Shown piece by piece: positions 30,874 through 60,800 of a stretch of DNA of 64,000 bases. Below the pieces are notes generated by a model. That model did no database searches. It had not been told where the DNA came from and saw only the letters and a program-made list of their open reading frames with translations. The translations under genes and the position numbers were made by a program. Source of the DNA: Paratinospora sagittata (taxonomy: Eukaryota; Streptophyta; Magnoliopsida; Ranunculales; Menispermaceae); NCBI GenBank assembly GCA_035771175.1, contig CM069593.1:22185956-22249955 (forward strand), given 5' to 3'. How positions within the stretch are numbered: position 1 is the first letter of the stretch; each line of letters starts with the position of its first letter.

Positions 30874-33800
30874 TCCTTTTTTGTTGCACTTTTGAGTAAC
30901 ACATGTCAGGAAAAGGCTTAGTTGAGTTAAGTTGAAAGACACGGATGTCAGTCCTAGAATCAACCCACCAAACATCATTCCAAAGTAAGGTCATGGAAGC
31001 CCCCTTTAGGTATTTTCTTTCGATTCTTAGCAAACAATGATGGTTTTAAATTCTTTTCTCTGTTCATCCCTAAACTGAGGCTCATAGAACGAAGGCTTCA
31101 GAAATCTTATTCTTTGTTTCTTTTCTTGGTATTTTCGATCTCTCAAGTTAGGCAACTTAGGCTGTTAGAAATATTATAGGCTTGAAGAATAAACTTAATT
31201 CATTCTTGAGTACCTAAACCTAAATTTTTGTACAATTTTCAATTAATTCCATAATTTGAAAAATAAACAAATCCAACCTCTAGAGATTTGCCTCCATACT
31301 CATACTCGAATCCAAGTAAGACAAAGGAGAATTGTTACCCCATGTGGAAGATTGAGATGTCCACTTAGTATTAGAAAGTTCACAAAAATCAGAGCCAATG
31401 GGGCTTAATTCATCCCAGACATGGTTCAAACATTCTTCGAAATTTGGCAAAATTCCACAAATTTTTTTCCTTTTTTTAACCACAGAAGTGCGAAGTGGAT
31501 GTAAAATAAAAAATACAAAAATTCGCCGAAATAATTCAATAAAATTTCTATTTTTCAATTCAAAAATGCAAAAAATCGACATAAAATTCGACAAAATTCG
31601 ACAAAGAAGTAAAAAAATGTTATTTCATCAAAAGAAAACAAAAAAATACCAATAATTATGTATTATTTTCAACTTCATCAACCAACATAGCAATATAAAT
31701 TTTAAAAAATAATTTAACAAGCTAACAAATTATGTAGTTTATGGGATATGCTTTACCAAAAAGAGAAAAAAAATAATAAAATAAATAAATAAAGTTGAAA
31801 TAAGATAAAAACTTAAAAATAAATTAAAAAAGTTCCCAAAGTCATTAAAAACAATACATTTAAATAATAAACTAATAAATTAAACATGGTGGAATTCAAA
31901 CTAGCAAAGTATATAGTCAAGAAGCAAGCCGCCACAAAATTAAATATCAAAACAAAGAAAAGGAATTAAGACTAAAAGCCACCATTTCAAATTCATCAAC
32001 CCACTTAACAAGATTGATTTTGTTAGGTCACTTATTGGTATTTTTATGTATTAAAAGTATCTATTTATATTAGTTTTTAGCTTATACTATAATAAATCTA
32101 GATATTTAAGCATATACACAAAAATTCTCTAAACTTCTCTAATTTAGTGAATTTTTACAAAAATTCTCCATGTCAAATTAAACTTCTCCGAATTAATTCC
32201 AATTTTCAAGTGACCGAAGTCAAGTCGAAATCGAATTTTCGATCCTTGATCCCAAATTAACACAACCAGGACTCAACTGTATCAACTACGTTCTTAGCAG
32301 GAAGAGGGAAAAATACCAACTCTGTCAAGGAAAATATTTAGTATCTCACTACTTCATCTTTAATATGATAGAAGACAACAAATATGCCTATCTATTTGCA
32401 TTTTCAATTCCAAGTTTTATATTTTTTTTTTGAGAAGAAACAAATGTATATATATTGCTTATAAAAAGTAAATAAAACATACTTGCACCACAAATGCATC
32501 ATGCGACAAAAACAACCCAAAGCACAACATTAGAAGAGAAGAGAAGACTCAGCCACAAATGCAAGAGCCCCAACCCACATTCCAAAGGACATAAAAAGCA
32601 GACTACAACTCAGCCTAGTAACGAAACACCGACACCCTCAAACAGCCTCATTTCATACAAGAAGCCCAATTGGTGAACCAATTTGAAATAGAGTAACCAT
32701 TTGACCAAGGAGACGCGTAGACCCATGTGTTCGCAGTTAACCTAATATCATCCCATAAATAAGCATCTGCTTTGCCCAAATTGGTGAAGACCCTCCTATT
32801 CCGCTCCAACCATAATGACCACATGGTTGCAAACGAAACGATAAGCCCAATCTCCCACTCCCTTTTTTTTAAACCTGAAATATGGGTGAGAGTGAGGCCT
32901 TCCAAAGCTCTGCTAGGCGGAAGAAGTATGTTGCCTGAGTTGTCTTTGAGCATAGCTGCAGCGGAAAAGTAAATGATCCATAGACTCTCCCTCCTACAAG
33001 CAAGCAAAGAAAACAACAATGGGGGTGGGTGGGGGGGGGGGGGGGGGGGGGGGGGGAGGAGGAGGAGGGAGGGACAGGACAGGACATGCAAATAGTGGGG
33101 CAACGTTTCTGCAAAACATCTAATGTGTTAGCTTTGTTAAGAGCAACCAACCACCCAAACACCCTTACTTTGAATGGAACATGCACTTTCCAAACACATG
33201 AGGTCAAGGGAGAAGGAGGGAGATGAGGATTATCTATAAGGAAATTGAAGAGGGATTTGCTGGTAAAGGTTCCCGATGAACAAAGGGACCAAGTAAATGT
33301 ATCTGGTTCATCGCTAAGGAGAATGTGTTTAATTTTGGGCATGAGAAGGGAAAGGTCTCTTTGGGCTTGTCTCGAGATCCCCCTATCTAAGTGTAGGTTC
33401 CATCTAAAGTTCATATCTTCATTATTCGGCGGGTTTGAAAGAAATGAGGCTGGAGGTTCGTTATGGACGGATGAGGTATTATAAAGTGTTGGGTACAAGG
33501 TCGCCAAAGGTACAGAATCCAACCATCTATCTTCCCAGAACCTGAAAGTAGATCCATCATTCACCCGGCACTGAACATGCTGAAAAAATCCTGCCGCCAA
33601 GGAAGGTATATACTTCCATGGACTCCGAAAAGAAGATCTGCCCTCGCTAATGTTTAAAGTCCCACTGTGTCCCCCTCCATGTATACTTTCGATCACCTGG
33701 GCCCACAAGGATTGCCTTTCTCTACCAAACCTCCATAACCACTTTTGAGCATAACGCAACATTTCTATGAAGAATGTTGCCAATCCCTAAGCCGCTCCTC

Positions 33801-36800: not shown

Positions 36801-39800
36801 TGGATTGGATTGCCACTTGTCATGGAACCAGTGTCTGATGAATTTTAAGTATTGCATGGAAAAAATATGTTAGCATGTACATACATTTGAGTCTCTAACT
36901 TCTTTTGTTTTATCTGTAAACTAGCCAACAAGTGATAAAGAAATATATTATGCTGCCAAAATAAATTGGAGAAATCAATTTTTTCTAGTTTCTAGTGTTG
37001 ACATTCCAAAAACATTCCATAGCACGAGCAAAAGATAGAAACTCCAGTGTGGTTGAGTCCACAAAATAATTATTTCTCAAGTATGGGTTCTGTTCAATTT
37101 TCCCCTTCTTCTATTTTTTATTTGTACTTTGTCGCAAACAAAAAAGGAGTATACCATACTTTCTTAGAGGAACCAAGTAAATTAATCATGGTCCTTAAAT
37201 TATTCTCATAAGAGCCTACGACAGTTAAATTCCATCTTTCCTGAGACAACATTGTAATAATTTGTTATCCAGAATAGCAGGAGCTTTCTATTAGCACTAT
37301 CTTCAACTAAAGAGAGAGTGTAACTCAACAATCTGGTATTAAGGAAAATATTCGGGAATAACCTGCACTTTTGTTGTGGAATAATCTGTTGGGTGAGCTT
37401 GCAAGAACTTTGAAACGACAGATCTATCAGCACTTCTCGAGTGGGCATCACCACTTCCATTTCCAAACCAGTCTGAATGGTCTGGGCAAAAAGATGCTCC
37501 AACACTCTGTAGCAGTGCTCTTATTTGCTATAGAGGTAAAAGAAAAAGTATCACCAAAAAAAAAAATTTATTTGATACCCAAATCCATAAAAATATATGA
37601 ATTACATTTCAAAAGTAACAAATTAAAGAAGGATCATATTTGCAACAACAACGTAAAAATTTTACCTGCTTTTCATCTCCCCTATTGGCAGCACATATTT
37701 CCCGCAAGTCTGGTCCCAAGTCCTGGCCAACTAAGTACATAGACAAGAAACAAATGTCAAAGTCAAGTAAAAACCATGTATGGGGCAAACAATGACCTCA
37801 ACCAAATACATGATGTGTTTAACTCAGTTCCCTTACCCATATAAATACTTTCAGGTTGTTTCAAAAGTATTGATCCTCAAATGAACACTAAAACAATCAG
37901 ACAATTCCTGGACTCTGTCTTATTTTTAAATTTACCTCTTCCCCGTTTGATCTAATGTGCATCTCTTATGAATGTTTTGCATGATATTAAGAGGCACAAC
38001 CTGCAATTGTACATGTCTGTAACTTGCTATTCTCATCAACATTTCAAAAATTACTGAAGCTATTCATTCGCTACTTGTTCTTTGTGACTCACAAACTCAT
38101 AACACTGGTCATCTTATAACTATTACCAGTTTAACTATTAGCAGCCATATTCAAACCTCTAGCCAATCAGTTTGAAATTAGTATCATATATGGAACACGA
38201 ATTTCTAATTTTCTATTCATTGTTGCTTCTTTAATATAATTTACATCATCGCCCCTGTCCCCTACAAAAACAAAAAAAAACAAAACAAAAAAAAAAAAAC
38301 AAAAGGAAATAATAGGAGGGAGAGAGAGGGGAAGAAGAAGAATAGAATTTTATCAAACTATTTTTTTTTTTTTTAAGACAGTGGTCTCCATTCCTTTAAG
38401 TCCGATTAATCCACTGGGACCTACACGCACCCACTACGCATCAGTCCGGATAAAGTAGAGCATCAAAATCGCCAAGTCAAGATTCGAACTCCAAACCTCT
38501 GCCTCAGTCGGTGTCTTCCGCCATTCCTCCCGACCATTGAGCCAATACCCTTATCAAACTTTATAGGTTGTAACATCTTATCAAGCACCAGGTTTTGTTT
38601 ATAAAGAGGAGTCAAATGAACTCCAAGTATATTTTCTGGCAAAGATTGCAAATTTGAATTGGCCCTATGGCCCTCTAAAATTCAAAATTAATTAGTGGAA
38701 GTCCAATTCGACATAAAGGATTGCTGTAAAAATTCGACATAGTAAAGAATTACTAAGAACTATATTTAAATGTTGTAAAGATCTATGTTTTTTTAGATAT
38801 GCTGAAACAAACCAAACTATATACTTAAAACTCATTAACATAGTTCAAAAAATCAAATTAATTAACCGAATTTTGACGAATTAATTCAATTTTTTGAACC
38901 ATCAAAGTAGGAAATGGATGTAATAGAAAAAATATAAAAATTCGCCAAAAAAAACCGATAAATTTTAATAAAATTCGTCAGAGAAGTAAGCATGTGTTAT
39001 TGTATCAACAGAAAATTAAAAAAATTACCAATAATTATGCGTTATTTTTAACTTCATCAACCAACATAGCAATATAAATAACAAAAATCTAACAAGCTAA
39101 CAAATCATGTAATTTTATGGAATATAGCTAATGAAAAAAGAAAAAAGAAAATAAAAAGAAAGAAAGAAAGAATAAATGAGACAAAAACTTAAAAATACAT
39201 TGAAAGAGTTTCCAAAGTCATTTTTTTTTAGTTAAAAACTTATAAAACAAGATGAAAAAAGCAATATATTTGAATAAAAAACTATAAATTAGGCAATGTG
39301 GAATGTCAAACTAGTGAAGTATATGGTTAAGAAACAAGCCACCACAAAATTGAAAATCAAAACATAAAAAAGGGATTACGACAAAAAGCCACCATTTCAA
39401 ATTCATCAACCCACTTAAAAAAATTGATTTTGTTAAGTCATTTATGGATATTTTTATGTAGCGTCTATTTATATTAGTTTTTAGCTTATATTACAAATTT
39501 ACAATAAATCTAGATATTTTAGCATCTATGTAAAAATTCTCTAAACTTCTCTAGTTTAGCGAGTTTTTAGAAAAATTCTCCACGTCAAACTAAACTTCCC
39601 CAAATTAATTCTGATTTTCAAATTTCAAGTGACCAAAGTCCAAGGCGAAGTCAAATTTTCAATCCTTGCTCATTAAATTATGAAATATGATGATTTAAGT
39701 TAAGAATCTAAGATTTATAATTTCTATATTATTTGGCGTATATTGTATGAGTAACAAGCTGTTTTATGACTTTTATGCTTGACATATGTAGGAGATATAC

Positions 39801-42800
39801 GGTTTGATTACACATAGTTTACGAATTACAAGTTCATTTTTGGTTTAATCTTATACTGCTTCTTGTTTTAATGATTCTCTATTTTATATCCAACATATGA
39901 AATTTCATAAACTTTATTCTTTAAGAATATCTTCTAACAAAAGTTGAAGTTAATATTGATTTTTCTTTTTTTACTTTGTGTTCGAAAGGTAAAAATTACT
40001 AAGGGATTTTTTGAATTTTTCAAATTATTTTGATATTCTACCGAACTTCAATGATTTTTTTGCAACAATTCAATTATATTTAATTTGTAATTTGATGACT
40101 GGAATAAAGTTCAATTAAGTCATAGAATTTTGTTTAATGGTCATTGTGTGTTTTCCGGAACACGTCAATAAGCTAGGCTCGTGCTATGAATTGTTTCATG
40201 CCATAAATAATCCTAGACATTCCTGCACACCATTGGACAGATCCACACCTTTTACAACAAATAGCATATAATATCTAGGAGCAGAAGCAATTAGCTTCAC
40301 ATCCATCCGAATGTATCATTTCTAACACATTTGTGGGTAAACTCTCCGACATTAGGCATACTGACATGTATCAAACAAATAAGCCAAAAAGAAAAAAGAA
40401 CTACAATCATACTAGTTTAGGGCACTCAGATTTGCATGGCACTAGAAGAGAAAAACACTTACTTCCATTCAAGCAAAGAAAACATTTAAGCTTTATAGTG
40501 GTCAAATGCATTTGAAGCAGAAACTTGAGAAGTAGATAAGAGAATGGAAGGGCATGCCCACATGGTCCAGCCATTGTAAGGGAGAAGAAAGGGTCGATGT
40601 ACTAAGCCTTGCCCCCGCATTGCGAAAGACTATTTCAGATTCGGAGTATGTAAGAGAGTGCGAGACATGTATAACGCAGTAATGACATTAGGAAAAGACA
40701 GGAAATGAAATGCACAAATAGAAAAAAGAACATGCCCCACAAGTGCAAGAGAGATATAGCAACTGACAAGAAGAGGGCCCAACCTCACAAATTAAGCATA
40801 CCATGGCTGAAGTAACCAAAGATTAAATAACTAGGGACTTAACAATGTACCTCCATCTAGTGGCGGAGGAGGAAAATCTTTCAAAACCTTCTCTATATGT
40901 GTTGAGCTATCATGACTAACAATACGAGCTACAAGACCCTCCAATATTTCACCTTGCACGTTTATGTGATCTTTTGACCCTGCAATAGATTTAAATGCCA
41001 CATTATAACTTAGAAAGACTTATGAAGTATAATTCACCAAAGCACCATTGACAGGGTTGATACCATAACCATTAATCCCAAATGTGAAGGACAAGAAGAA
41101 AAGGATTTTAAGTAAAGGTTTGGAGTGCTTAGGATATAAAAGGAAAAAATGGCATGTCTAGGAAAAGTTAATGTCTAGAACATAAATGCTAATGCCCCTA
41201 AAAAAAACAGAACATAAATGCTAACTTTTGAAACAGACAGAACTTAAAATCTACCTGGTACAGATATATCTGCAACTTCATCAAGAGCTTTACATACAGT
41301 TGTCGCAGTTCCTTCCTCACATAAAGCATCATAAGCGGCAAAAAAGGAAGTAACAGATTTCCTTCAAACAGAGAGAGATGTCAGAAAAATAAATAAATAA
41401 ATGGTCTAATTGTTTCAGAAGTCGTAACCAATCTTATAACATTGAATTTAATATGATGGTATTTGAGGGTGAGGAGAGTTTGAGTGTGGGAGAACTCTCG
41501 TTTATTAGCATCTTTTTGAGTTGCAAATAGCAGGTTGTCTAGGGTTTATACACTTAATGATTGGGTAAGACTGTAAGAGGTTGGGAAAATCTTGTATAGC
41601 TTTAAGCGATTAAGGGGGATATCTTATCTTCCTTTGTCACCTATTGTAACCATTTATTTTATTTATATATATTCTCTAGTTTCTATTAAATAACTTAGTA
41701 GGAATGAAAGCCAACAAGAAACACAGTTTTTAGAATAATACAAGTAGCATCTTTTAGCTTAGCAGAAATTTTATCACGAATTCCACCAGTTTCAGTGTAT
41801 GCTCCACACTGACTTTTTTTCAAAACAGTAATTGATAAATGAAATGATATAAATATGAAATGCAAATGTAAATCAACACCTTATTGTTTCTCCTCAGAAG
41901 TGAAATACAGATCTCCAAGAGTCTATGAATTTAGATGGAAAGAATAAGTGTTTGTTTTACCCATTTTACAGACAATTATGTCTAGAACAAGTACCAGGCC
42001 ATTCTTGGGTATATGGTTTACATATTACTTCAAATGCCACCTCATTTGCAATTGTCTAATTGGAAACACTCTTCTGCAATGTGCAACGAAAATAACAAAC
42101 ATTCCATTTGACCATCTGAACAAGACACACTTGAGACATCATAAGTTAAAATGCATATTGTCAAATAAAATGGAAGTCCTGGCCATAATGCATAACCCGG
42201 TATTCCAGCCAAAGTGATGTAGAACATTTTGCTCTTGATTTCATGAAGAAGCACGAGAGGAGGAAGACTGAGTGAAGAATATTTGAGTAAGTCAGCCCAA
42301 CTTTGATCGAGTAAACTTAATCTAAGAATTAGTCAACCAAGTTCAGATTTCAATTCCGAACTTAAATTTCTAGGTCAAATGACTTGAATCTAAATAATGT
42401 CTAGATACATCCTCAAATTGAACTTATGGTTTATTTCTATTTTGAGATAAGTTTCCATATTGAATAGGTTTCTTCAAACATACTTTAAGAAACTACTATT
42501 ACCAGGAATATGACTTAGGAGTCTAGATTTCAAAGTTGACGTTCGTTCTTTGAGTTTTCTTTATGAAGTTCCCCATATAAACTTCAAAAATTGGCATTGG
42601 TATCACTCTAATCAACCAAAAAGGAAAGAAAGAAAAACAATCATTTAATTCCTAGAGAAGATTTCTTTTCCTCTTTATTTTCTTCCTGGGTCTTTCCGAT
42701 TATGAGATCTACTTTTTTTTATGCTTCTGCTATGTTACAGATTCTAATGTTAACAATATGAACAACCATGACCAAGTGTAGCAACATTAGTTAAAGAACT

Positions 42801-45800
42801 ACAAATTTGCACATCAAATGATATTCTCACAAAAGATAGTTATCTTCAATGCTTCATGAATCGGATGTTAGTAAGACTGGCTATCATTCGACGTTCACCT
42901 TGTTGAGAACAACCAAACATGATTTGTTGGTAGGCGCCATCTCCTACAAAACGCAATTATATCAGGAGTGGCGTAGAACTTTGGTTTTCCATTTCCCAGC
43001 TCTGAGACTGCGGTCACTACAACTGCCAAGAAGCGAAAATAGTTAGTATGTGGCCATGGTTTAACAGTGAATCTGTGAAAATTAAGTCAACTTTTTATAA
43101 AGCATAGAACAGCTGCAGAAGCATTCATCAAGAGAATAGTGGCATAGAATCATCATAAGGAACAATGTGCATAACAAACAAGAAAAGAAAGAAGCTTTCT
43201 TCAAAATAAATGAATAACAACACTAAATGAAATACCTTTTAGAAACATGATCACGAGATCCTAGCTTCTATAATAAAGTTTTTTATGTAGAACATACAAT
43301 AATGTTTAAAAAGGTTCTAAATTTAATTTTTTGTTTCTTTCCATTTTTTAGGCAAGCTTACTTCTTTAGCGATGCTTCTATTTAGTAGAATTCTAATTTC
43401 TTATTTTATTTGTAGATCTAGATGGTTTCTAATTTGTTTTTCACAGTAATCTCAATATTTATGTCCCAAGTAAATAGCTTATCAACTCGTAAGCGTTTGG
43501 CGAACGAACTCGAAAGAAGAAGAACAGATCTGTAGTCCCAACAACACTTAAGGTCGTGTTCTCATTCTCTTCCTCAAGCTAGAAGAAATGGAGACTTTCC
43601 TATTCACCTCTGAATCCGTGAATGAGGATCACCCTGACAAGCTGTGCGACCAGATCTCCGACACAGACCTTGATGCCTGCCTCGAACAGGACCCTGACAA
43701 CAAGGTTGCCAGCGAGACCTGCACCAAGACCAACATGGTCATGGTTTTCGGAGAGATCACAACCAAGGCCAATATCGATTACGAAAAGATAGTTTGTGAC
43801 ACCTGCCGTTCAATTGGATTCGTTTCCGATGATGTCGGTCTCGATGCTGACACCTGCAAAGTTCTTGTCAACATTGAGCAACAACGCCTGGATATTGCCC
43901 AAGGTGTCCACGACCACCTTACCAAGCGCCCTAAGGAGATCGGTGATGGTGACCAGGGACACATGTTTGGCTACGCCACCGACGAGACCCCTGAGTTGAT
44001 GCCTCTTAGCCATGCCCTTGCCACTAAGCTCAGTGCCCCCCTTACCAAGGTTCGCAAGAATGGCACCTGCGCGTGGTTGAGACCCGATGGCAAGACCAAA
44101 GTCACCGTTGAGTACCAAAATGGCAATGGTGCCATGGTCCCCATTCGTGTCCACACCGTCCTCATCTCCACTCAACATGATGAGACTATGACCAACGATG
44201 AGATTCTCACTGACCTCAAGGAGCATGTCGGAGTTGGATAGAAAAGAGGGGGGTCCAGAGTGGAATGATGTTGTGGCTCGTGAAAGGTCCATTGCCAAGG
44301 CTGAGTTATGGAAGTTATGTGTGAATGAGGATAGAGCAGCGATCCTTAAATCCAGGGTTAGGTGGTTTAAGGTTGGGGATGCTAATTCGAAATTCTTCTA
44401 TCAGATTATGAGTGGTAGAAGGGATATCAATATCATCTCTAGGTTGGAGAGGGATGATGGGACTGTCTTAGAGGAGGAAGAAGAGATTGTGTCAGAAATT
44501 ATTGATTACTTTCGAGGTATTTATTCAAGAGATGGGAACCGTGTTTGGAGGGTTGATGGAATTGAATGGTGCCCAATTAGGGAGGCAAACAATCATGAGA
44601 TTGAAAAGCCTTTTGATGAGGAGGAGGTAAGACAGGTTGTGTTTGAATGTGAAGCTACCAAGGTTCCAGGGCCTACTGGTATGACCATGTGCTTCTTCCA
44701 AAATTGTTGCGATGTAATCAAGGGTGATCTCATGAAGGTGATGGTGGAGTTTTTTGACAACGGGATCGTTAATGGTTGCACCAACGAAACATACATTTGC
44801 CTAATCCCTAAAAAGACCGTGTCCAAAAGGGTCGTTGATTTTAGGCCTATTAGCCTCGCTACATGTCTTTATAAGATTATTGCAAAGGTGTTGGCAAATA
44901 GGGTGAAGGGTGTTTTACAGAATACGATCTATGAGAATCAAATGGCCTTTGTACAAGGCCGTCAAATTGTAGATGTTGCGCTTGTTGCAAATGAATTGGT
45001 GGAGGACTACAGATCTAGGAGAAAAGAGGGGGTTGTATTGAAGCTTGATTTTGCCAAAGCTTACGGCATGGTCAATTGGGATTTTCTTGATTATGTTTTT
45101 AAAAATGAAGGGGTTTGGTTCGAGATGGAGGATGTGGATGTGGGGATGCTTGCGCTCAGTATCTTATTCAGTATTTGTTAATGGTCGTTCGAGGGACAAG
45201 ATTGTGGGGGAGAGGGGACTCAGGCAGGGTGATTCGCTTTCTCCCTTTCTGTTTACTATAGTTGTGGATGTGTTGGGGAGAATCTTGGATAAGGCAAAGG
45301 AGGCAAGTATGGTTTCAGGCTTTCGGGTTGGCCAAGAGAATGTGGAGGTTACTCATCTCCAGTTTGCTGACAATCCATTGATATTCCTAGAGGGGAGCGA
45401 AGGTTGTATTGCTAATGCATCTATGGTTGTGAAATGCTTTTGTTGGTTATCAGGGTTGGTTATTAACATGGCTAAGAGTCAGTTAGCGAGCATACATGTC
45501 TCTCAAGAATGGATGGGGGAAATGGCAGATCTACTCGGATGCACTACTTGCTCTTGGCCTATGAAATACTTGGGTATGCCCTTGGGGGGTAATCCATCCA
45601 AGACGGATTTTTGGGAACCTGCTGTTTCCAAGGTATCGAGAAGACTTGATGGATGGAAAAGAAGTTTCTTATCCAAAGGAGGAAGGCTTACACTAATCAA
45701 AGTCAATGTTGGATGCCCTACCAACTTACTACTTATTTGTTTTCCGGATTCCAGTGAAGGTGGCGGATCAAATAGAGAAGTTAATGAGGGACTTCCTGTG

Positions 45801-48800
45801 GGGGAATGATGATAGGTTAATGGGATCTCATCTAGTGTCTTGGAGCATTGTGCAGAGGAAGACTAAACAAGGAGGTTTGGGCATTGGAGATGTGATTAAC
45901 AGAAATAAAGCTTTGGTTAGAAAATGGCTATGGCGATTTTCGAGGGCGAAGAATTTTTTGTGGAGGAAGGTCATTTGTAGTGGGCATGGGCTACGAGATA
46001 ATTTGAGTGATGTTGGGTTTGCCAATAGAGCCACCCTTAGGAACCCTTGGAAATATATCTCATTAGTTTATCCTCTACTTTTACCCTTGGTTAGACTCAA
46101 ACTTGGAAAAGGTGACTCAATTTGTTTCTGGGAGGATATTCGGTGTGGGAATGACACCTTCCAAACACTTTTCCCTAACATTTATTGTTGATCTGTATCC
46201 CATAATAATAAACCTATTATTGACTTTGTGAGGATTTTGGAAGAATCCTCACTGTCGTGGGATTTCCATCTAGGTAGGCATATCTCCCCTAGAGAGGAAA
46301 GGGATGTGTTGTCTTCATGGTTCGAAAATTCTCCAAAATTCGGTGAACTTCTACGAATTATTTCTCTTTTTTTACCATCGAAGTGCGAAGTGGATGTAAA
46401 ATAAAAAATGCAAAAATTCGCCAAAGTAATTCGATAAAATTCAACAAAATTCGATAAACTTCAATAAAATTTCTATTTTTCAATTCAAAAATGCAAAAAT
46501 TCGACAAAATTCGATAAAATTCAACAAAGTTCGATGAAATTCGACAAAGAAGTAAAAAAATGTTATTTCATTAATAAAAACAAAAAAAAATATAAATAAT
46601 TATGTATTATTTTCAACTTCATCAACCAACATAGCAATATAAATTTTAAAAAATAATTTAATAAGCTAACAAATTATGTAGTTTATGGGATATGCTTTAC
46701 CAAAAAGAGAAGAAAAGAAGCAAAAAAATAAATAAATAAAGTTGAAAAAGGATAAAAACTTAAAAATAAATTAAAAAAGTTCCTAAAGCCATATTCTTTT
46801 AGTTAACTCTTATAAAACAAAATTAAAAAATAATACATTTAAATAATAAATTAAGCATGGTGGGATTCAAACTAGCAAAGTATATAGTTGAGAAGCAAGC
46901 CACCAAAAAACTAAATATCAAAACAAAGAAAATAAATTAAGTCCAAAAGCCACCATTTCAAATTCATCAACCCACTTAATAAGATTGATTTTGTTAGGTC
47001 ACTTATTAGTATTTTTATGAATTAAAAGTGTTTATTTATATTAGTTTTTTAGCTTATACTATAATAAATCTATATATTTAAGCATATATAAAAAAATTCT
47101 CTAAACTTCTCTAATTAGGAATTTTTTACAAAAATTCTCCATGTCAAATTAAAGTTTTCCAAATTAATTCCAATTTTCAAGTGACCGAAGTCAAGTTAAA
47201 ATTGAATTTTCGATCCTTGGATGTGCGTTAAACAATGTTAATGTAAAAATACATGTTTCAACCGATTATATTTATACTTTTATATGTGAAAAATATCTAT
47301 TTATGTTTGTTTTCATCATTTCTAATAGTAATTATGCATATTTTAACATCTATATAGAAATTCTTTAAACTTCTCCAAGTTGGCGAATTTTTACAATAAT
47401 TCTCCAAGACGTCTCGAACTTCCCTGAATTAATTCCGATTTTTAAAGGTCGAAGTGTCGGGCGAAATCGAAGTTTCAAACCTTGGTTGTCTTTAGTTAGT
47501 TTACTTGAGGGATGTCATTTGTCTAAGGAAGATGATAGGGTTACTTGGCCATGGGAATCTTCAGGAACCTTCACCATCAAGTCATTCCATGCATCTATTC
47601 TGAATGTGCCAAATATTCCTCCTTTCAATTATCATAATTTTATTTGGAAACCACTGGTGTCATCAAAGGTTAAATTCTTTGGGTGGGTTGCTTCTCTTGG
47701 GAAGATGAACACGGGTGATATGTTGCAAAAGAGAATTCCTTATATGTACTTATCCCCATAATGGTGTTACCTCTGCAGACAGGAACTGGAGTCTGTGGAA
47801 CATGTGTGTTGGTGTTGTAGGTTTGGAGTAGATGGTGTTACCGTTTTTCGGTTATGAATGAAGTGGATATGGAGGATGAAAATATAAACATATTCCCTTT
47901 CATGAATAGTGTTCCGGCCCAGTGGAAAGAACACTGGAAGGTGGTTTGTCTGGTAGTGTTGTGGTCTTTATGGAAGGAACGTAATAAACGCGTGTTTCAT
48001 GACGAGATGTGTTTGGCAGTTAAAGTGTGGGAGAACTCTCGCCTTTTAGCTTCCTTTTGGGTGGTCAATAATAGCTTGTCTAAAGAATAAAGGCTAAGCA
48101 CTAGGGGATTGGATTAGAGGGGGGGACAATTTTGTATCGGATTAAGGTTTGGTCGTGTCGACGTATTGTCCCTGGTGTACAGTTTTGTATTTCTTTTTTA
48201 TCCATGTATATATATATATATATACTATCTATTAGTTTCTTTTTAAAAAAAAAAAAGTAAATAGCTTATCAATTAGGACTTGTCTATCAATTAAATATTT
48301 ATGTTGACAATTGGTGAAGTATTTTTATTAATAGAACATGAATGTAGCTTAAGTCATCTGGATATTCCATTCTGGTCACATTTTAGTCTCCTACCATGGA
48401 AAGAATGTTGTTTTCCCAAACGTAATTTGTTGAACAAAGTTTCTTTTAAGGCCTAACAACCTAGAAATACATGTTTGGTGGCATCTATGGATATTTAATG
48501 CATATTGTAGCACCTCAACTGGTTCTCAAACACTATGTAACAATTAAGAGTTCCCATTAACCATCCACAAACTAATTCCGCCAGTCCAGTAAAGTTTAAT
48601 TTAGAGTAGTCGTCTCAATTAATTGGTTTATTCATATTGTCTTCAACTCTTGTTAGACAAATTGTAGAATACATGCATATAGACTATACCCTCATGAGTC
48701 CAATTGCCATAGATGTAATGATATTTACTTTAGGAAGTCTTCACACAACTTCCCATGGTTGATCATGTGTAATGTCAACTATCACCACAAGTCTAATGCA

Positions 48801-51800
48801 ACTAACTAAAACTTAAATTGGACTCCAAAGGAACTCTCAACGAATGAAAGAAGTTTTTATACTCGTTACAATCCTAAGAAATTTTAAAATATATGATGAA
48901 ACATGATACTTTGCATGAGATACACGAGCCACATGCCATTGCCTCATTGGACCTCCAATCCTTGGCCACTGATGAAACCAAAGTGAAAGTGAAAGTGAAA
49001 GTGATGCAGGGACGCATGAAACACATACATAACGTGTTTAGCATGTCTTTTATTTTTATTATGTTTTCTATTTTCGTTTCATGTCTTTGTTAGTGGGCCC
49101 ACGTTAGGTGGTTTAAGCCCACGTAGTAAAGTAGTTGGAAGTGGCGTCAATTTAGAATTTTATTTGGTAGTTTGTTATAAATAAGGCTTTTTGCCATTAG
49201 GAGAGGGGCTATGATATTTTTTTAAAGAATTCGAATCAATAGATTTATTTTGGTTATCTTTGTATATTTTCATTCTTGCTTTCGCTACGAATCTACATCA
49301 AATTGGTATCAGAGACAGGTTGATCTTGCTTTTTTCGACAATGGCACCAAAGAAGAGAAGAAGACCCGCAATCAATCCTTGGGTCGATCGACTGGAAGAA
49401 TTGAGCACCAATACTACCAAAATTGTGAATCAACTAACAGAAGTTTCGCACTTGACGTTGTCGCAACAACAATGTCACGAATCAATCGTTGTCTAAGATA
49501 GGGAGAAGGCCGCAGGTTCTCACAGCAAACGCGCAGTCTCACTCCATGATTCGAAGCAGGGGTCCAAATCCGACCAATCTTATACGATTAATTTGGATCG
49601 TAGGGATCGTTGCCATCGCAGGCGCTTGCCTGCACCACAACCTCGATGTAAGGTTCATTCCACACCGACAGACCTAGATGAATGGGTCTGAACTGGGTTG
49701 CGATATAATCGTCGCGATGACCTAGGCGCACCAGTTTGGCATCGAAATATAGCCTACAGCGAAGATTATGAATGTGATCCTTCACCAGATTTTGTACATC
49801 ATCTGAGATTGCAGAAGCGAGTACGAGATGGCCATCCAGGGCGCCGAGAGCCTCGTTTTCACCATCGAAATACGGCTTATAGCGAAGATTATGAATGTGA
49901 GTTCGATCCGCATTACGCGAGGAATGACCTACAGTATACCCCGATTTCTAGTCCCTCCCCTCCCAAGCGTCAGAACGCCAACACAAGGCAAAGGCATGTT
50001 CAGAATTATGCACGTAACATTGATCTTAATCGTTTTCTGTGCATCCTAGAGAAGAATCAATATGGAGATATCAAGATTGATGTTCCCGAGTTTGATGGCA
50101 AACTGCACCCTGATCGCTTTTTTGATTGGCTGAACAAAATTGAAAAGGTTTTTTATTACAAGAACCTAAAGGACCCTAAGTGTGTGAAGCTCATAGCTAC
50201 CAAGTTATCAGGCTATGCTCTAGTGTGGTGGGATGAATTGCAACAAAGTCATCTTCTCAGTGAGCAAGAGAAGATCGCCACATGGGACAAGATGCAATGA
50301 GAACTAAAACAAGAGTTTATTCCTCTAGATTATGAGAGAGATCTTTTTATGAGATTGCACAACTTGAAGCAGCGCCTTCAGAGTGTGACTGAGTATAAAG
50401 TGGAATTTCGTTTGCTTGTCACCAGGGTTGAGTTAGTTGAGACAGTCAAACAAAGAATTGGGAGATATTTGAATGGTCTGCGACGGTCCATCCAACAAGA
50501 TCTAGCTTTCAAGGAGATTCATGACATGTCAGAAGCTATAAAATATGCCTTGAAAGCTGAGGAATTACAAAAACAGAAGACTGGGGCCTCTTCTAGTGCA
50601 CCTTCCCCTGCAGTAGTCAAACCTTCGATCCCTGAAGGTGTCAGGTTAACTTGTTTTGAGTGCAACCAACCAGGTCACCGTGCGAGTGAGTGTCCCAAGA
50701 AGAAGCGTGTTGCTTTGGCTCACGATGGTGAGATGGAGGAACCTGAACCCCAAATTGTTGATGATGATTTGGGTGTTGCTTTATATGCTAAGTCAGGTGC
50801 TCCGGCATTGATTGTGAGACGTTCTCTCATCTCACCCGTTTCCCCACATGATCCTAATGCATGGCTTCGTCATAATATTTTTCGCACTCGGTGTAAGTCG
50901 TAGGGTCGGCTATGCAATGTGATCATTGATAGTTGTTCCAGTGAGAACATTGTTTCTACAAATATGGTGGAGAAGTTGAAGTTGAAGGATGAAAGCCCAT
51001 CCAAATCCCTTTAAAATCCAATGGCTCTAAAAGGGAAATGAAGTCAAGGTTGACAAACGATGGTTATTTCCTTTCACCATCGGTAAATATACAAATGAAG
51101 TTTGGTGCTCAGTAGCTCCTATGGACATTTGTCACTTACTACTGGATCGCCCGTGGCAACATGACAGGAAGTGCAACCATGATGGCGAGTGCAACACTTA
51201 TACCTTCATGTTTAAGGGGGAGCGAGTTACACTGTTTCCTTTGCGGCCATCTAGCACCCCGCCTACACCACCGTCACTTCCTTCGAAATCAAGCTTCCTT
51301 GCCACCAGTTGTGATTCTAGTATGGTTTTAGCAGTCATTGATTCATTTGTTGCTTCACCTACTGTTGTCCCACATGTTTTGCAGTCATTATTAGATTCAT
51401 TCTCTGATGTTTGTGATGAGCCGACTGATGTTGGACTTCCCCCACTACGGGACGTTCAGCATGCTATAGACTTTGTTCCAGGCGCTTCTCTTCCAAACTT
51501 GCCACATTATCGCATGTCTCCCACTGAACATGTCTCCATGCTATAGAAAAGTTACAGAGCTATTGGGCAAAGGGCTAATTCGAGAGAGCGTGTCTCCATG
51601 TGCAATCCCGGCATTGTTCACTCCCAAGAAAGATTGCAGTTGGCGCATGTGCGTAGATAGTCGAGCGATCAACAAGATAACGGTGAAGTACAGTTTTCCT
51701 ATTCCGAGGTTGGAGGACATGATTGATTCTTTACACGAAGCGAAAATCTTCTCCAAGCTCAATTTGCACAGTGGCTACCATCAGATACGCATGCGACCAG

Positions 51801-54800
51801 GAGATGAATGGAAGACAACTTTCAAGACAAAGGATAGCCTTTATGAGTGGTTGATTATGCCATTTGGCCTTTCTAATGCCCCCTCTACACTCATGAGGCT
51901 TATGACTCATATTTTACGTCCCTATATTGGGAAGTTTGTCGTTGTCTATGTCAATGACATACTTCTCTATAGCATTTCCGAGTCAGACCATATTCAACAT
52001 CTTCAGGTTATTTTACAAGATTTGAAGGGGGCCAAGTTGTACTACAGCTCCAGAAGTGTTCGTTCCTCATTGACTCAGTTGTTTTCTTGGGCTTTGTGAT
52101 TTCTGCACAAGGGGTTCATGTTGATAATTCTAAGGTACAGGCTATACTTGATTGGCCTACTCCACTACCCTCACACAGGTTCAAAGTTTCCATGGCTTGG
52201 CTACTTTCTACCAACGATTCATTCAGAATTTTAGTAGCATTGTAGGTTGTAGCTCCCATCACCTCTTGTATGAAATAGGGCCCTTTTGAGTGGAATCCCG
52301 AGGCTAATGCTGCCTTTCACTTGATTAAGGAGAGGATGACTTCTGCTCCTATTCTAGCATTGCCAGATTTTTCACAACTATTTTAGGTTACATGTGATGC
52401 ATCCAAGCAGGGCATTGGGGATGTCTTAAGCCAAAATGGACGTCATGTTGCATTCTTTAGTCAGAAGCTGGATGGGGCTAAGCTGAATTATTTCACTTAT
52501 GATCTGGAGCTCTATTCAGTTGTACAGGCTTTGCGACATTGGCGTCATTATCCTATACATAAGGAGTTCATCATTAAATCAGATCGTGAGGCACTTCGAT
52601 ATATTACCCAGCAAAAAGTTTCTAATCGACATGCCAAGTGGTTTGCATTCTTACAGGGTTATACCTTCCATTTGCAGTTTCAAGCTGGGAAGGATAATCG
52701 ATTTGCAAATGCATTGAGTCGGCGTACTCCCTTGCTTGTCACTTTGCGCACTTCGCTTTTTGGTTTCGATGAGTTACAAGATCTATATGTCAGTGATGAG
52801 TACTTTGGCCCTATTCATGCTGATTGCTTATTACATCATGGGGCTTTTGGTGATTATCTTCTTCAGGATGGTTTTTATTTCATGGGCAACAGTTATGCAT
52901 TCCTTCTTCCTCCCTCCGTGAGCATATTATGACTGAGATGCATGCTGGGGGAATGGCTGGTCATTTTGGGGTTATTAAGACCATTGCTTCTATTCGTGAT
53001 GTCCCTATTCCTTACAGACCTTAGCTAGATGCTTCTATGGACTTTGTATTGGGACTTCCATGATCCTCGCATCGTATGGACTCCATTCTTGTGGTGGTCG
53101 ATCGATTCTCCAAGATGACTCACTTCATTCCATGCACTCGCACTGTTGATGCCGCTCATAATGCTCATTTATACTTTCGTGAAGTTGTTCGCTTACATGG
53201 CATTCCTCGTAGTATTACTTCTGATCGGGATGTGCGCTTCACTAGCTACTTTTGGAAAACGTTGTGGAAGCTCTTGAAGTGCCAGCTGCAATTCTCTGCT
53301 GCTTTTCACCCGCAAACAGATGGTCAGACTAAAGTCGTCAATCGTAGCTTGGGAGATTTGTTACGATGCTTGATTGAGGAGAAGCCTAAGTCTTGGGTGT
53401 TTGTTTTGACACAAACAAAGTTCGCTTATAACAACTTTGTTAGCCGGTCTACTTGTTTATCACCGTTTATGATTGTGACTGGTACTTCACCTCTTACAGT
53501 TGTGGACTTGGCCTCTATTCCACCTACTCTCCTGGTGTGTGCTTCTGCAAAGGAGTTTGCTTCCAAGATTAAGTATATCCACAACGATGTTCGTAGTCGC
53601 CTTAAGAAGTCATACGCTTCTTATAAGGCTCATGTAAATGCTCATCTACGATCTGTTTATTTCAAGGTTGGTAATTTGGTGATGGTTTATTTGTGAAAGG
53701 AACAACTATCATCTCCTCAAAAGTTGATGATGCGGAGTTATGGCCCTTTTTCTATTGTTGCTTGTCATGGTGATAATACATGAGGTCGACCTTCCTTTTA
53801 AGTGGCGCATATCTCGGTCTTTTAATGTTGCGTGACTTTCTCCTTTTGTGGGTGATGTGATTCCTCTTATACCTCTACCTAGCAATGCTCGCTCAGTGCC
53901 TACTTCTGCTTCTAAACGTGTTGAAGGTGTTCGAGATGTTTCTTCATTCTCTATTCGCCTTGGTACCTGTACTCGCTATTTAGTCAAGTGGGGTGGGCGT
54001 CCTTTGTCTGAGAGTACTTGGATTTCAAAGGCAAGATTTCAAAGACTTAATCCTGATTTTTATGATGCGTACAAGAACTCCATCTCGAGGACGAACTCTT
54101 CTCATGCTGGAGGGATTGATGCAGGGACGCATGAAACACGTGCATAACATGTTTAGCATGTCTTTTATTTTTATTATGTTTTCTATTTTCGTTTCATGTC
54201 TTCGTTAGTGGGCCCACGTTAAGTGGTTTAAACCCACGTAGTTAAATAGTTGGAAGTTGTGTCAGTTTAGGATTTTATTTGATAGTTTGTTATAAATAAG
54301 GCTTTTTGCCATCAGGAAAGGGGATATGATATTTTTCTGAAGAATTCGAATCAATAGATTTATTTTGGTTATCTTTGTGTATTTTCGTTCTTGATTCCGC
54401 GACGAATCTACATCAGAAAGTGTTCAAGGTGATAAACAATAGCGAAGCCTTAAAACTTTTCAAGAAGGGCAAGCCTTGGCACAACGGCTAAGGTTACCCC
54501 ATTGTGACCAAGACGTCATGAATTCGAATCCAGAAACAACCTCTTCAATATGGTGGTAAAGATACATAAATTACCCCTCCCAAAACCCCGCAATGACAGG
54601 AACCTCGTGGACTAGGTACAACCTTTTTCTTAGCCCAAAGGTTTAACAGAATCTCTATGGAACCATCCAATTTCTATAACTAATTGAATTTCATTGCACC
54701 AATGCATTGGTTACATTTAAGAGGGTAATACAAAAGTTTTTATAACTACAAATATGAGTCAAAGCGTCACTGGCACTTCCACGACTAGCTCAACCCTATT

Positions 54801-57800
54801 GTTGGAATAGCTGTGTGTACCATCATCGAGATTTTGATTGCTTAAAAACCAATTTGGTCCAAAATTAAGGAATAACCAATTAAACCAAATGATGCCCTCA
54901 ATGTTGCCAAACTACGCATGTAACCCAAGTCAATTCACAAGTTTTTCAAATCCACTAGTGAGAGATGCACAAAATACATGTATGTCATCACTAAGACCAA
55001 CAAGCTTGACAAGACTATGAATTGAGCGGATTAACAATCAAACATAAATTTAGCTATCATGTATTAAAGAGGCAAAGCATTTGTGCTAGTTGGACTATAG
55101 AAAAAGTCAAGACAAACCCTATAGCTACTCATATAACAAGTAGCCCTTAAACAATAAAACATATATATATATATATATATTAAGCAGACACAATGCTATT
55201 TAATTAATTGACCATTAACACAAAATAAAACTCTGGAAACAAGCACCAGAAGTGCTTGGCCCATATTGAGCAAGTAACCTCCTGAACACAAACTCAATGT
55301 GTCTGATACAAGCAATTGGACCAACTTAGACTCCAATCAGACAATGACAAACCCTTAACTAAGGATGAAGCAAAAGCCCATGTACTAGCCACTTAGCCAG
55401 GAATCTAATGTTGTCCCAGACTCGTACTCCTTCCTTGGTAATGTTGTTAAAGATTCTCCTATTCCGCTCAAGCCAAAGAGACCAAACTGTTGCGAATGAC
55501 ACAATTCGAACCATCTCTTTTTCTATCCCCAAAAGGTTAGGTAAGTGTGATAGAGATAAAGCATCATTTGAATAAAATATATTGAATTGATGAGGAACAC
55601 GATTTCTAGTTGTATCATTAGCAATTGCATGAATCTAGAGAATTTTCTGATATAATCATGTACTTTATTGAGATACAACAAGAGAACTCCCCTCTAAGAA
55701 TTGTATACGCGATTTCATTTCGTACAGCTCAAGCAAAAACATTCCAATACTAATTTCAAGCACATATGTAATTAGAAAGTTTGAAACTTCCCTTTTTACT
55801 TCCAAAGATTCACTCATGAATATATTAAGGACCAAATGCTTGATGAAAATGCCAACTTATCAAGTCAGCTCATTCACCTTTATGTGGACCATCACAAGCA
55901 TCTTGAATCTTGTATCTTTACTTCATTTTTATTTGTATTTCAGCTATTTTTTTATTTGTGTGCAATGCATGCTTTTGTTTGTATTGCATCGATAGGAATT
56001 CTCTTATTCAAACCATATGAATTGATTGAAACCTAAGGCTTTAACATAGAAATTCAAGACCTTTCAAAACCATCTGATTGTTAAGCATAAATCAAAACCA
56101 AAAACTACAGATACACATGAAATAAAAATCCATAGCATAGGGTAACAGTGAACAAGTCTTGTGCAATGAAGAAAGCATGAATGGAAACTTAAAAAGGTAA
56201 ACAAACTATTTAAATAACTTCAGCTTTCTTGTGTCATTCACAATACATATGGGCTCCCTTAATGATGCATTTTTTTTAACTGAAAAGCAAAGATGAAATC
56301 CATACCATAATCTTCCCGCGGCCGCTGTCCGTGATCCCCTAGAACAGCAGTTACCAATTCCATTGAGACACACATACGATTCGTCTAAAACAAAATCATA
56401 TATATGATTACTTTCTTTGAAGAAGTTGATGAAGTTGCAATGATAAGCATAATGCACAAGCTTTAAAACAAGGAAGTAACTATATATTACAGCATAAAAC
56501 TCATCTCATTCTAAGGTCTTAAATATGTTATACCTAACAAGTAGCAAGTAGAGACACAAAAAATCAATTAGAAAAAGATGAAAAAACTAAGTTAAGATAA
56601 AGATTTAGAAAGCAAAATCGCATAAATCTCATATATTAATGTACCTTTGAATTCATAATGCTGGACATAGTTCATTAAATCTCATATATTAACGTACCTT
56701 TGAATTCATAATGCTGGACACAGTTCAATTAAGATTAATGAATGATGTGTGTGTGTGTGTGTGTGAATGGAAGAAACAGAAAGTGCTTCTTTTCATGTGG
56801 TTTTTCCAAGGCTGGTGGGGCCTCCTATTTTCTCTTCACTTTTCTTTTGATATAAGACAATGGAGGAAGAATACGAAAAAATAGCCCAAGAAATGCACCT
56901 AGACTAATCTACATGAATGGTTTCTGACCCAAATAGATACCAACTACATATAAGTTCAGAAGAAACAACTACAGCATCTCTAATACCTCTTTCCCACAAA
57001 TATTTGTACTTATCACGACTGACTCTTCAGTGAAAAGGATGAAATTATTAGTGTCTCTGAAATGTTATGAGACATGGACTAACTCTCACACAAAGCTCCT
57101 TTGATGTTTGTCAGTCTACAGGATTCTACACACCCAGTAATGATCACAAAGTTAACAACCATATCTCCAGTGAAAAATAAATCACAGGATGGGAGTTCAT
57201 TTTGAGGTACAAGCCCAAGCTAATAGCGTCTCTCTAGCTGGCAAAGGAATTATATAAGATCATTTCGTCTTTTGTTGGCAAAAGTAAACAAGAAGATTTT
57301 TCTTTTGACATGAACAATATTCCTGTACCCCTCTTACTTATTTAAAGGAATGTTACTGGGTTGGTATGGTTTAAGTATCAAGGCATCCAAAAATCAGAAT
57401 ATCAAAAATATTGTTGTTGATCCTTAGGGTTCCAGTTCCAACCAGTTGACAGAAGTGGAAACAACCAAACTCATTGTTTTTTTGTTATTACCAGTTATAT
57501 TCAGATTTGAGTTAGCATTTAGCAACAAACTTTCAATTCCTATCAGTTCAGTGATGGTTCTTTTCAAATAGGTCTTAACAAAAGCAAGAACCATTAATAT
57601 TGCCAGTTTATTGATCTAGTACTAGTTAGAATGGTTACCAAAAATCTCCCCCTCCCAACCTAAGTTCCTTTCATCTAGGTATTGATTAAGGAGGGAGATT
57701 TCTGAGATAATGGGTCATTTTCAGTAAATGCACACATTATGACATGGAAAACACAATTTGTGCTAGAAATAACTAATCTTGTTGCTAAATTGAAAGAACT

Positions 57801-60800
57801 AGGGATGAATGTTGGTGAATTTTTCTTAATGTCTAGTTCATTTTAAACTCATTGCCTCGGTATAGGTCATTTCAAATGCACTACAACATCATTAAGGATA
57901 AGTGGAATGTGAATAAGTTGGCTAGTATGCTTGTTCAAGAAAACGCACAACTCAATCAACAAAAACAACATTCTGCTCAGCTCGTGACTCAAGGGCCAAA
58001 CAAGAAAGGGAAGAAAAGGGGAAAGCATAAAGCGTGGACCACCCAAATCTAACGAGCCTGCCCAAGTTCAAAAAAGGAACATATTGATAAATGCCACTTA
58101 TATAAAAAATTATAGCTTTATCAAAAAGATTGCTAGAAAAGAAAGGTCCAATTCGAAAAGAAAGGTATTAATTTCAATAATGTTTCTTCTCAAGAAAAAA
58201 TCATTAATGTTTGTTTTGAATCTAATCTTACTAAAGTTCCAAATACTTGGTGGATTGATTCAGGTCCTACTGTTCATATTTTTAACACAAGTTGCACAAT
58301 GCAGGGATTTGTTACGAACCAAACCATAAAGAGAAATGAGAAGTACATCATGAGAAATCAGGACAAGGTTTCAATTGAAGTTGTTGGCACTTTACACTAG
58401 TCTTTAGATACTGGATTTACTTTAGAAATGTTTGACACCTTTCGCATTCTCACATTCTCCAGCAAAGCACCCAAAAAAAATTATATTTTAGATCGATTAG
58501 TAATTACTTAATTGGTTAGCCTAAAAAATACAAGCTATAGAATTTATTTATCTCATTGTAGTGCAAGAATTATGGAAATTGGAAACACCAGATTCCTGAA
58601 GAACAGTAAAGACAGTGAGAGTGATAAACCACAAACTATAAAAGTTCATAAGGTAAGGATATGCATCTCATTACCTATTACTTCCAAGGAAGTTGTTATT
58701 TCTATATTTGTTCCTAATTTTGACAACATTGAACAACAAATTACTGATCAATTTCCCATAATGGAATCATCACCAATAACCAAATTGCAGAACCACAGGG
58801 AATAACATTAAGGAGAGTTCAAAGAGAAAGAATATATGCTACTCCAGATGATTATATGGCGTATCTACAAGAATTTAACTATGATATAGGGACAAGTAAA
58901 GATTTGGTTTCATATGTTAAAGCAATAGAAACTGTGATTTTGCAAACTAGATTGATTCCATGAATGCAGATTTAAAATAAAAGGCTCAAAGTAAAGATTG
59001 AGATTTTATTGGATTGCCTGACAATTTTAAGAAAGTCGATTTTAAATGAGTCTTTAGGACTAAAAGTGACTCCATTGACAATAACAAACAATTTAAAGCT
59101 AGACTTATAGCCAAAGGTTTTACTCAGAAACACGACATTCATTATAAAGGACCCTTTTTCCATCTAAAATGGAAACTTTCAAACTTACTATAGCATCGGT
59201 GGCTTATTTTAATCCTAAGTTACACCAAATTGAAACAAAATCTACTATTCTAAATGGTAGTTTAAAGAAACAGGTCCATATAGATCAGCTTAAGGTATTC
59301 ATAGAAGAAGGTTGTAAACTTAAGAAGTCATTTACGGACTAAGCAAGCCTCCCAACAATGGTATCTTAAGTTTAATGATATTGTTATATCTTTCAATTCT
59401 AGAGAAAACGTCATTGATCGGTGTACATTAGTTTGGAGTAAGTTCAAATTTTTTATCTTATTTATTAATGATATTTTGTTTGTCAAAAGTTTCTCTTTAA
59501 GAACTTTGAAAAATAAAGGATATGATGAGGCAAACTACATGATAGGTATCAAAACCTTTCGCAATCGATCACGTGGATTATTGGGATTATCTTAGAAAGC
59601 ATATATAGAAAAGATTCTAAAGAAATTCTATATGATAAATGTTCGGCGGGTACTGCTTCTATGCAAAAAGAAGATAAGACTTTGTTATTTATTGTTGTCA
59701 AAATGAGGAACAACTACAAAGTAACAATGTCCTTAAAAGTAATATATAATGGGACATGTCGCAGACTTCTTGAATTTCGACAAGTTTGTGATATATCGTA
59801 TACCACTCCCACTGTTTTCACCATTCTTAAGGAATCTAGCATTTTCTATTTTCACAATTCTAGCACTATAATTAGGACAATAAATTCTATAGCCCTTTGG
59901 TTTTTCAAAGTGACCACTAATGGTTCTAAAATTTTCAACTTCCTTTCTTGTGTTTTCACCATTCTTAAGGAATCTAGCATTTTCTAGCTTCACAATTCTG
60001 GCACTATAATTAGGACAATAAATTCTATAGCCCTTGGGTTTTTCAAAGTGATCACTAATGGTTCTAAAATTTTCAACTTCCTTTCTTGTGGATTGTAATT
60101 TTTGGCCTCTGCTAGACAACCCCACATATGTAGATGTCTCATACTCTATGTCCTTCCAATCCACAATTCAAAAGGGGTTTTAGATACTGACTTCTAAATT
60201 AAGTTGACTAATACATGCATAATTCTAGCTTCAAAGTTTAGTGCTAGAAGGGGAAGGAGTACACAGTACCTTTCGCTTTCTTTTGACTGGGATTATTGAG
60301 TCATCATCAATTCATCACCAAGTTATTTTACATAGCTTCAAACATGGTTGTCATGCAAATTTAATGGAATGATTTATAACTGGAGCTATACTAATATTAC
60401 CATTGTGCTTTGAAGATTCCATTGTGCTTTCATTAGAAATTATAAGGAAATTACCTCAAGAAAATTGTTGAACTCAGATTCCTTTTTAAATGCTTCAGTC
60501 CCCCATGCCTCGCGGAACATCTTTCCCAAAACAAAAACACCAACAGCAGTATATCTGCATTATGAGCATAATGCTCTCTCAGATTCAACTTGGAATAGAG
60601 ACTCTCGAAGAAGTTAGGTGGGGTTTGAAGATTTTTAACCAATAATGAAGGTAACAGAGAAACAATGCAGAAACTATAAATTATGAACATACATATTTCC
60701 AAAGCTATTCTTAGCATATGCTCCACCCTCATTCCCGGCATACATGAAAAGTGACCCTGAATGTTTGAGTGAGACCTGTAGAAGTCACACATGTCAAACC

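What the first reader, a model, noticed from the sequence alone, without database searches (positions are those of the whole stretch)
43468..48272. SAM synthetase-LINE chimeric retrocopy inserted as one unit
An 18-bp perfect target-site duplication (43468-43485, 48255-48272) encloses a SAM synthetase mRNA 5' end joined at 44229/44230 to LINE ORF2 plus poly(A). The polarity (cellular 5' part, LINE 3' part) is what template switching during target-primed reverse transcription would give. U6-L1 chimeras in mammals and the MINE elements of Magnaporthe are the nearest known cases. I know of no plant example with this gene. The SAMS frame stays open for 217 codons.
Basis: partly seen in the sequence, partly recalled or inferred. 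Interest (0 to 1): 0.88.

Follow-up and report, generated by a model that had tools for sequence, protein, structure and literature searches.

The report
Plant mRNA–LINE hybrid inserted as one
In a plant genome, the front part of a spliced SAM-synthetase messenger RNA and the back part of a LINE jumping gene sit together as one insertion, most simply because the jumping gene's copying enzyme switched from its own RNA to the cell's mRNA, as is described in mammals and a fungus; it looks like a dead relic rather than a working gene.

Summary
A perfect 18-bp duplication (43468-43485 / 48255-48272) encloses 744 nt of SAM synthetase (SAMS) mRNA joined at 44229/44230 to a 5'-truncated LINE ending in poly(A). 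The source gene was found on two near-identical contigs. The copy starts 33 nt after the gene's TATA box, at the likely cap site; the 890-nt 5'UTR intron is removed exactly; the copy leaves the gene in mid-exon (GTC|ATC), with no splice donor; the LINE enters inside ORF2, with 0-1 nt of microhomology. A partner contig carries the same junction and the same TSD, so an assembly error is excluded. None of the 7 other SAMS loci found carries a LINE in its reading frame. Best explanation: template switching from LINE RNA to SAMS mRNA during target-primed reverse transcription (0.78). A ligated RNA, or the transcript of a lost SAMS::LINE gene, would leave the same product. The open frame is not evidence of function: 48% of neutral simulations keep it. 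It inserted once and was later split by a hAT-like element. It is a plant variant of a known kind; eight paper searches found no earlier plant mRNA-LINE case.

The parts
43468..43485 (+). 5' target-site duplication AAGTAAATAGCTTATCAA
   Evidence: same in the C18 copy
43486..43578 (+). SAMS 5'UTR exon 1, starting at the likely cap site
   Evidence: aligned to C13/C25 exon 1; gene TATAAATA starts 33 nt upstream of the homologous start
43579..44229 (+). SAMS exon 2: 9 nt of 5'UTR, ATG at 43588, codons 1-214
   Evidence: exon 1/exon 2 joined exactly where the gene has an 890-nt intron
44229..44230 (+). SAMS/LINE junction (GTC|GGAG here, GTC|AGAG in C18), 0-1 nt microhomology, no splice donor
44230..46315 (+). 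5'-truncated LINE, ORF2 from upstream of the RT domain; RVT_1; frames broken
46308..46315 (+). 8-bp TSD GTTGTCTT of the nested element (left)
46316..47484 (.). Nested 1,169-bp hAT-like/MITE-like element, ends CATGGTTCGAAA / CAAGGTTTGAAA (reverse complement); absent from the C18 copy (empty site)
47485..47492 (+). 8-bp TSD GTTGTCTT of the nested element (right)
47493..48244 (+). LINE 3' part incl. zf-RVT and 3' UTR
48245..48254 (+). poly(A), 10 nt (12 if the AA of the TSD is counted)
48255..48272 (+). 3' target-site duplication AAGTAAATAGCTTATCAA

Best explanation
A plant LINE (reverse transcriptase and zf-RVT of the kind found in plant L1 elements) nicked the site CCC/AAGT, primed on its own poly(A) and copied about 2.8 kb of LINE RNA. 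Inside ORF2 the enzyme left this template and continued on a spliced SAMS mRNA at codon 214, copying it to the 5' cap. Joining to the upstream target gave one insertion flanked by a 16-18-bp TSD. Shown: one TSD round the whole; cap-to-junction mRNA with the intron removed; truncated LINE with poly(A); same orientation; no splice site at the joint; same event on a second contig. Inferred: the template switch itself, and when and in what cell it happened. Afterwards the copy drifted neutrally, apparently never moved again, and in the C5 copy was split by a DNA transposon.
For: TSD. Exact intron removal and start 33 nt below the TATA box. Breakpoints in both parents located; no GT donor on the SAMS side and no AG just before the LINE side. 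7 of 7 other SAMS loci found have open 391-393 aa frames, so no LINE-bearing SAMS gene was seen. Junction and full flanks in 2 places only, colinear and with the same TSD. Comparison set: of 5 other independent 5'-truncated copies of this LINE family, 3 end at or within 9 nt of a TSD with nothing added, so extra 5' sequence is not a general feature of the family.
Against: No empty site was seen; both C5 and C18 carry the insertion. The switch entered SAMS inside the mRNA, whereas many published chimeras carry a complete cellular RNA; this could mean a cleaved mRNA or a ligated RNA. The target is CCC/AAGT, not the canonical TT/AAAA. In the comparison set 1 of 5 copies has only a degenerate TSD and 1 of 5 none, with a foldback repeat upstream. 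A fusion transcript from a lost allele leaves the same product.
Confidence: 0.78

Rival explanations
1. A LINE had inserted into a SAMS gene at codon 214; the SAMS promoter made a SAMS-LINE fusion mRNA, spliced in its leader and ended at the LINE poly(A); this fusion mRNA was retrotransposed and the LINE-disrupted gene copy was then lost.
For: Predicts the same product, including the spliced leader, the mid-exon joint and the absence of a splice site. Promoter co-option of this general kind is reported for one human intronic L1 (PMC13174262, passages).
Against: Needs an extra rare event and a loss; 7 of 7 other SAMS loci found are open and none carries a LINE in the frame.
Confidence: 0.11
2. 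SAMS mRNA, cleaved after codon 214, was ligated to a cleaved LINE RNA before reverse transcription (RNA ligation model).
For: Both RNAs are internally broken at the joint, and RNA ligation is one of two published models for U6/LINE-1 chimeras (PMC13174262, passages).
Against: Nothing in the sequence separates it from a template switch; it needs two cleavages and a ligation.
Confidence: 0.08
3. cis- or trans-splicing of a SAMS exon to the LINE.
For: Favoured for human mRNA/LINE-1 chimeras, where 6 of 17 end exactly at splice donors (PMC13174262 section 13).
Against: The joint is inside SAMS exon 2 at GTC|ATC without a GT donor; the LINE side is not preceded by AG in the 4 relatives compared.
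Confidence: 0.01
4. Two separate insertions (a LINE into an older SAMS retrocopy, or the reverse), or an assembly artefact.
For: Nested insertions are common in plants, and one (the hAT-like element) is present here.
Against: One TSD spans both parts; no SAMS remainder or second TSD follows the LINE; the second contig has the same structure.
Confidence: 0.02

Closest known systems
MINE (WEIRD-MGL) chimeric retroelements of Magnaporthe (PMC2104539, passages read)
   Same: Cellular RNA part at 5', 5'-truncated LINE at 3', same orientation, one pair of 10-20 bp direct repeats.
   Different: WEIRD is non-coding and copied full length, with 31-odd copies; here a protein-coding mRNA is copied from the cap to an internal point, in one event.
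Mammalian U6/L1 and other snRNA/L1 chimeras (PMC13174262, passages; older work recalled)
   Same: TSD, poly(A), truncated LINE, candidate template switch in the primed reaction.
   Different: Small RNA partner; recurrent in mammals; LINE-1 and not a plant LINE.
Human mRNA/LINE-1 chimeras (17 in hg38; PMC13174262, section 13 read)
   Same: 5' part of an mRNA in sense, then LINE, with TSD and poly(A).
   Different: There the L1 is mostly near full length and 6 of 17 joints are at splice donors, so splicing is favoured; here the LINE is truncated inside ORF2 and the joint is in mid-exon.
L1-like retrocopies in Arabidopsis and cassava (PMC4838847, parts 1-2 of 3 and searches read)
   Same: Spliced mRNA copied into a dicot genome with poly(A)/TSD hallmarks in part of the cases.
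   Different: Those cases are inferred from hallmarks; no template switch is mentioned. Here LINE sequence itself is covalently joined to the mRNA copy.
Sadhu retroposons of Arabidopsis (PMC2848041, passages read)
   Same: The nearest plant precedent found: chimeric structures ascribed to template switching or transduction (a 19-bp extra stretch; a 150-bp 5' stretch).
   Different: In the passages seen the extra stretches are short and not traced to a gene; Sadhu is non-autonomous; no LINE/mRNA pair.
LTR-retrotransposon gene capture in plants, e.g. Bs1 (PMC13317346 and PMC5408686, passages read)
   Same: Host mRNA joined to retroelement cDNA, by template switching in one model.
   Different: LTR machinery, gene piece between LTRs; here no LTR, TPRT hallmarks instead.

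Membership tests
LINE-made bipartite chimeric retrogenes (features i-v as listed in PMC2104539) | (i) 5' part is a full-length copy of a cellular RNA | tested here: not met
   5' end complete (cap site) but the copy stops at codon 214 of a 391-codon gene.
LINE-made bipartite chimeric retrogenes (features i-v as listed in PMC2104539) | (ii) 3' part is a 5'-truncated LINE | tested here: met
   LINE begins inside ORF2 and runs to poly(A).
LINE-made bipartite chimeric retrogenes (features i-v as listed in PMC2104539) | (iii) truncation sites vary at random between copies | not testable with these tools
   One event only.
LINE-made bipartite chimeric retrogenes (features i-v as listed in PMC2104539) | (iv) parts directly joined in the same transcriptional orientation | tested here: met
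LINE-made bipartite chimeric retrogenes (features i-v as listed in PMC2104539) | (v) one pair of short direct repeats flanks the whole | tested here: met
   also in C18
Spliced mRNA/LINE-1 chimeras (human class, PMC13174262 section 13) | Joint at a splice donor, or near full-length LINE | tested here: not met
   Mid-exon joint without GT; LINE truncated within ORF2.
Ordinary LINE-made processed retrocopy | Introns absent | tested here: met
   The 890-nt 5'UTR intron is missing exactly.
Ordinary LINE-made processed retrocopy | Poly(A) follows the mRNA's own 3' end | tested here: not met
   SAMS stops at codon 214; the poly(A) belongs to the LINE.
L1-type plant LINE | RVT_1 with zf-RVT | tested here: met
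L1-type plant LINE | Endonuclease domain upstream of RT | not tested
   Lies in the truncated-off part; the relative L013 was checked in two RT-region pieces only.
L1-type plant LINE | TT/AAAA target | tested here: not met
   CCC/AAGT; plant cases with non-standard sites are reported in PMC4838847.

The most novel reading that the evidence does not exclude
The first clear-cut case in a plant of a LINE reverse transcriptase switching in mid-reaction from its own RNA to a host protein-coding mRNA, so that one insertion records both the enzyme's own template and the captured spliced mRNA. If it recurs, plant LINEs build chimeric retrogenes as mammalian and fungal LINEs do, by true template switching and not by splicing.
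Probability: 0.6. Interest if true: 0.65.

Novelty: new variant of a known kind. Interest (0 to 1): 0.55.

Why it matters
In plants the part played by LINEs in making retrogenes has been inferred from poly(A) tails and target duplications; the authors of PMC4838847 ask for work that would formally test the link between LINEs and retroposition in plants. Here the LINE's own cDNA and a spliced host mRNA lie in one TSD-bounded insertion, which ties the two physically. The joint is also unusually informative: both parents are located and a splice junction is excluded, so it bears on the question, open in mammals, whether mRNA/LINE chimeras come from splicing or from template switching. The single locus itself looks functionless.

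Tried and rejected
Second copy as a second retrotransposition: rejected, because C18 is colinear over window 37564-55797 at about 96-97.5% and has the identical TSD. It is the other haplotype or a homeolog; C13/C25 SAMS genes differ by only 0.9% in 642 nt, so I lean to haplotypes but did not settle it.

Selection on the 217-codon frame: rejected as unsupported. 34 changes on the chimera branch (16 synonymous, 18 not), plus 6 on the C5 branch (1, 5) and 3 on C18 (2, 1). 48% of 5,000 neutral simulations keep no stop; the synonymous excess (17 against 12.6 expected) has p = 0.077, a weak lean towards constraint that the polarisation, which tends to give saturated synonymous changes to the chimera, may explain. 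Gly of GHPDK in the plant SAMS chains is Asp in both copies.

Splice-made chimera: rejected by the joint. LINE inside an older SAMS copy: rejected by the TSD pattern. Wider survey of the LINE family for other chimeras: only 6 regions (5 independent insertions) could be read; none is a shown chimera, 1 is unresolved. Search of public proteins of 119-379 aa: the best of the 120 listed (7,998 scored) is 88% identical, so no annotated copy of this locus was seen there. The species was not identified.

One search failed (script error). One block compared the wrong stretch because the C18 joint differs by one base; redone.

Full report
What is there. The window lies in a plant genome of 1.29 Gb (G000:C5:22185956-22249955). 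At 43468-48272 an 18-bp perfect repeat encloses SAM synthetase sequence, LINE sequence and poly(A). The chance of such a repeat at one register is about 5e-11, and it lies exactly where a target-site duplication should: one copy directly before the SAMS leader, the other directly after the poly(A).

SAMS part. Searching the genome with the 744 nt gave 11 matches, all scored: the window and C18 over the full length; two rows each for genes on C13 and C25 (about 92% for exon 2, 81-82% for exon 1); three on C7, one on C19 and one on C5 at 76-81%. In the C13/C25 gene the leader exon ends ...CAG|GTATGT and the next begins TTTATCAG|CTAGAAGAAATGG; the copy reads ...CAAG|CTAGAAGAAATGG. The intron is 890 nt long in C13 and is cleanly missing. 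The homology begins at CTCGTAAGCG, 33 nt after the first base of TATAAATA in the gene, where a plant transcript would be expected to start (recalled rule). So the donor was a spliced mRNA copied up to its cap. Without the TATA box the copy brought no SAMS core promoter.

Junction. In all 7 other SAMS loci the sequence after the joint continues ATCAA; in the 4 LINE relatives compared LINE sequence continues upstream. C5 has G and C18 has A at 44230; with A there is 1 nt of microhomology, with G none. There is no GT donor on the SAMS side and no AG before the LINE side, which disfavours splicing.

LINE part. It begins inside ORF2 before the RT domain and has RVT_1 and zf-RVT. Its frame is broken. 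The family is large: 2,903 first-look candidates, 40 scored, 45 rows. The best other long match is 84% identical, on C2. A 1,169-bp element with 8-bp TSD and ends like those of hAT elements (recalled) interrupts it; C18 has the empty site.

One event. A 201-nt probe over the joint gave 40 scored matches of 99 candidates: 2 span it, 2 are SAMS only, 36 are LINE only. The 3' flank matches in 2 of 2 places. The whole 5' flank matches in 2 places; the other 38 of 40 scored rows (71 candidates) cover only a repeat in its last 210 nt. C18 is colinear over 37564-55797 and carries the same TSD. Differences between the two: 1.4% in the 5' flank, 1.5% in SAMS, 2.1% in the LINE, 2.9% in the 3' flank. The insertion is therefore older than the split of the two copies. 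About 6% change on the chimera branch (40 and 37 of 642 nt) means very roughly 10 million years at a recalled plant rate.

Mechanism. The order cellular 5' part, LINE 3' part, poly(A), one TSD is what a single switch of template in target-primed reverse transcription gives, because synthesis starts at the LINE poly(A) and ends at the cap of the second RNA. Two routes cannot be told from it by this sequence: ligation of two RNAs before copying, and retrotransposition of a transcript from a SAMS gene that held a LINE and was later lost. No such gene was found: 7 of 7 other SAMS loci are open for 391-393 aa. No empty site was available, so the TSD is the evidence for one-step insertion.

Comparison copies. 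Of 5 independent 5'-truncated copies of the family (6 regions, two being the same locus), L060 has an 11-bp TSD touching the LINE start, L057 a 10-bp TSD 9 nt away, L059 an 18-bp A-rich repeat touching it (read by eye from the printed flanks), L056 a degenerate one, and L055 none, with a foldback repeat upstream. This is too few to give a rate of chimera formation.

Function. Neutral simulation keeps the frame open in 48% of runs, and the synonymous excess is not significant (p = 0.077). The conserved Gly of GHPDK is Asp in both copies. I take it as a pseudogene. Expression was not tested.

Literature. Eight searches in an open-access library gave mammalian and fungal chimeras, plant LTR captures, L1-like plant retrocopies and chimeric Sadhu elements, but no plant mRNA/LINE chimera in the listings and passages that I saw. 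Subscription papers are mostly not in it. A 2026 review of gene capture by plant transposable elements names LINEs once, as a class; 'LINE-1', 'long interspersed', 'non-LTR' and 'retrocop' do not occur in its text. Of the five features listed for such chimeras in PMC2104539, three are met, one (a full-length cellular RNA) is not, and one cannot be tested, so I call this a variant.

Noticed in passing
46316-47484; related stretches near 6335-6978, 26609-27503 (inverted), 31463-32251, 38882-39663: A repeat family with several related stretches in the window; the copy in the LINE has an 8-bp TSD and short terminal inverted repeats, so it is a hAT-like DNA element still mobile after C5 and C18 split.
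   Followed up: partly
41477-41541: A second fragment of LINE 3' sequence (78% to 48018-48082) about 2 kb upstream of the insertion.
   Followed up: no
43275-43477: The insertion lies at the edge of a dispersed repeat (72-79% copies on many contigs).
   Followed up: no
49002-49300 and 54117-54415: Direct repeat of 299 nt, 92% identical.
   Followed up: no
59813-60088: Tandem duplication of a 138-nt unit, 96% identical.
   Followed up: no
L055 1-1025 (C1): A foldback-type repeat family (inverted copies on several contigs) ends right at the start of a truncated LINE.
   Followed up: partly
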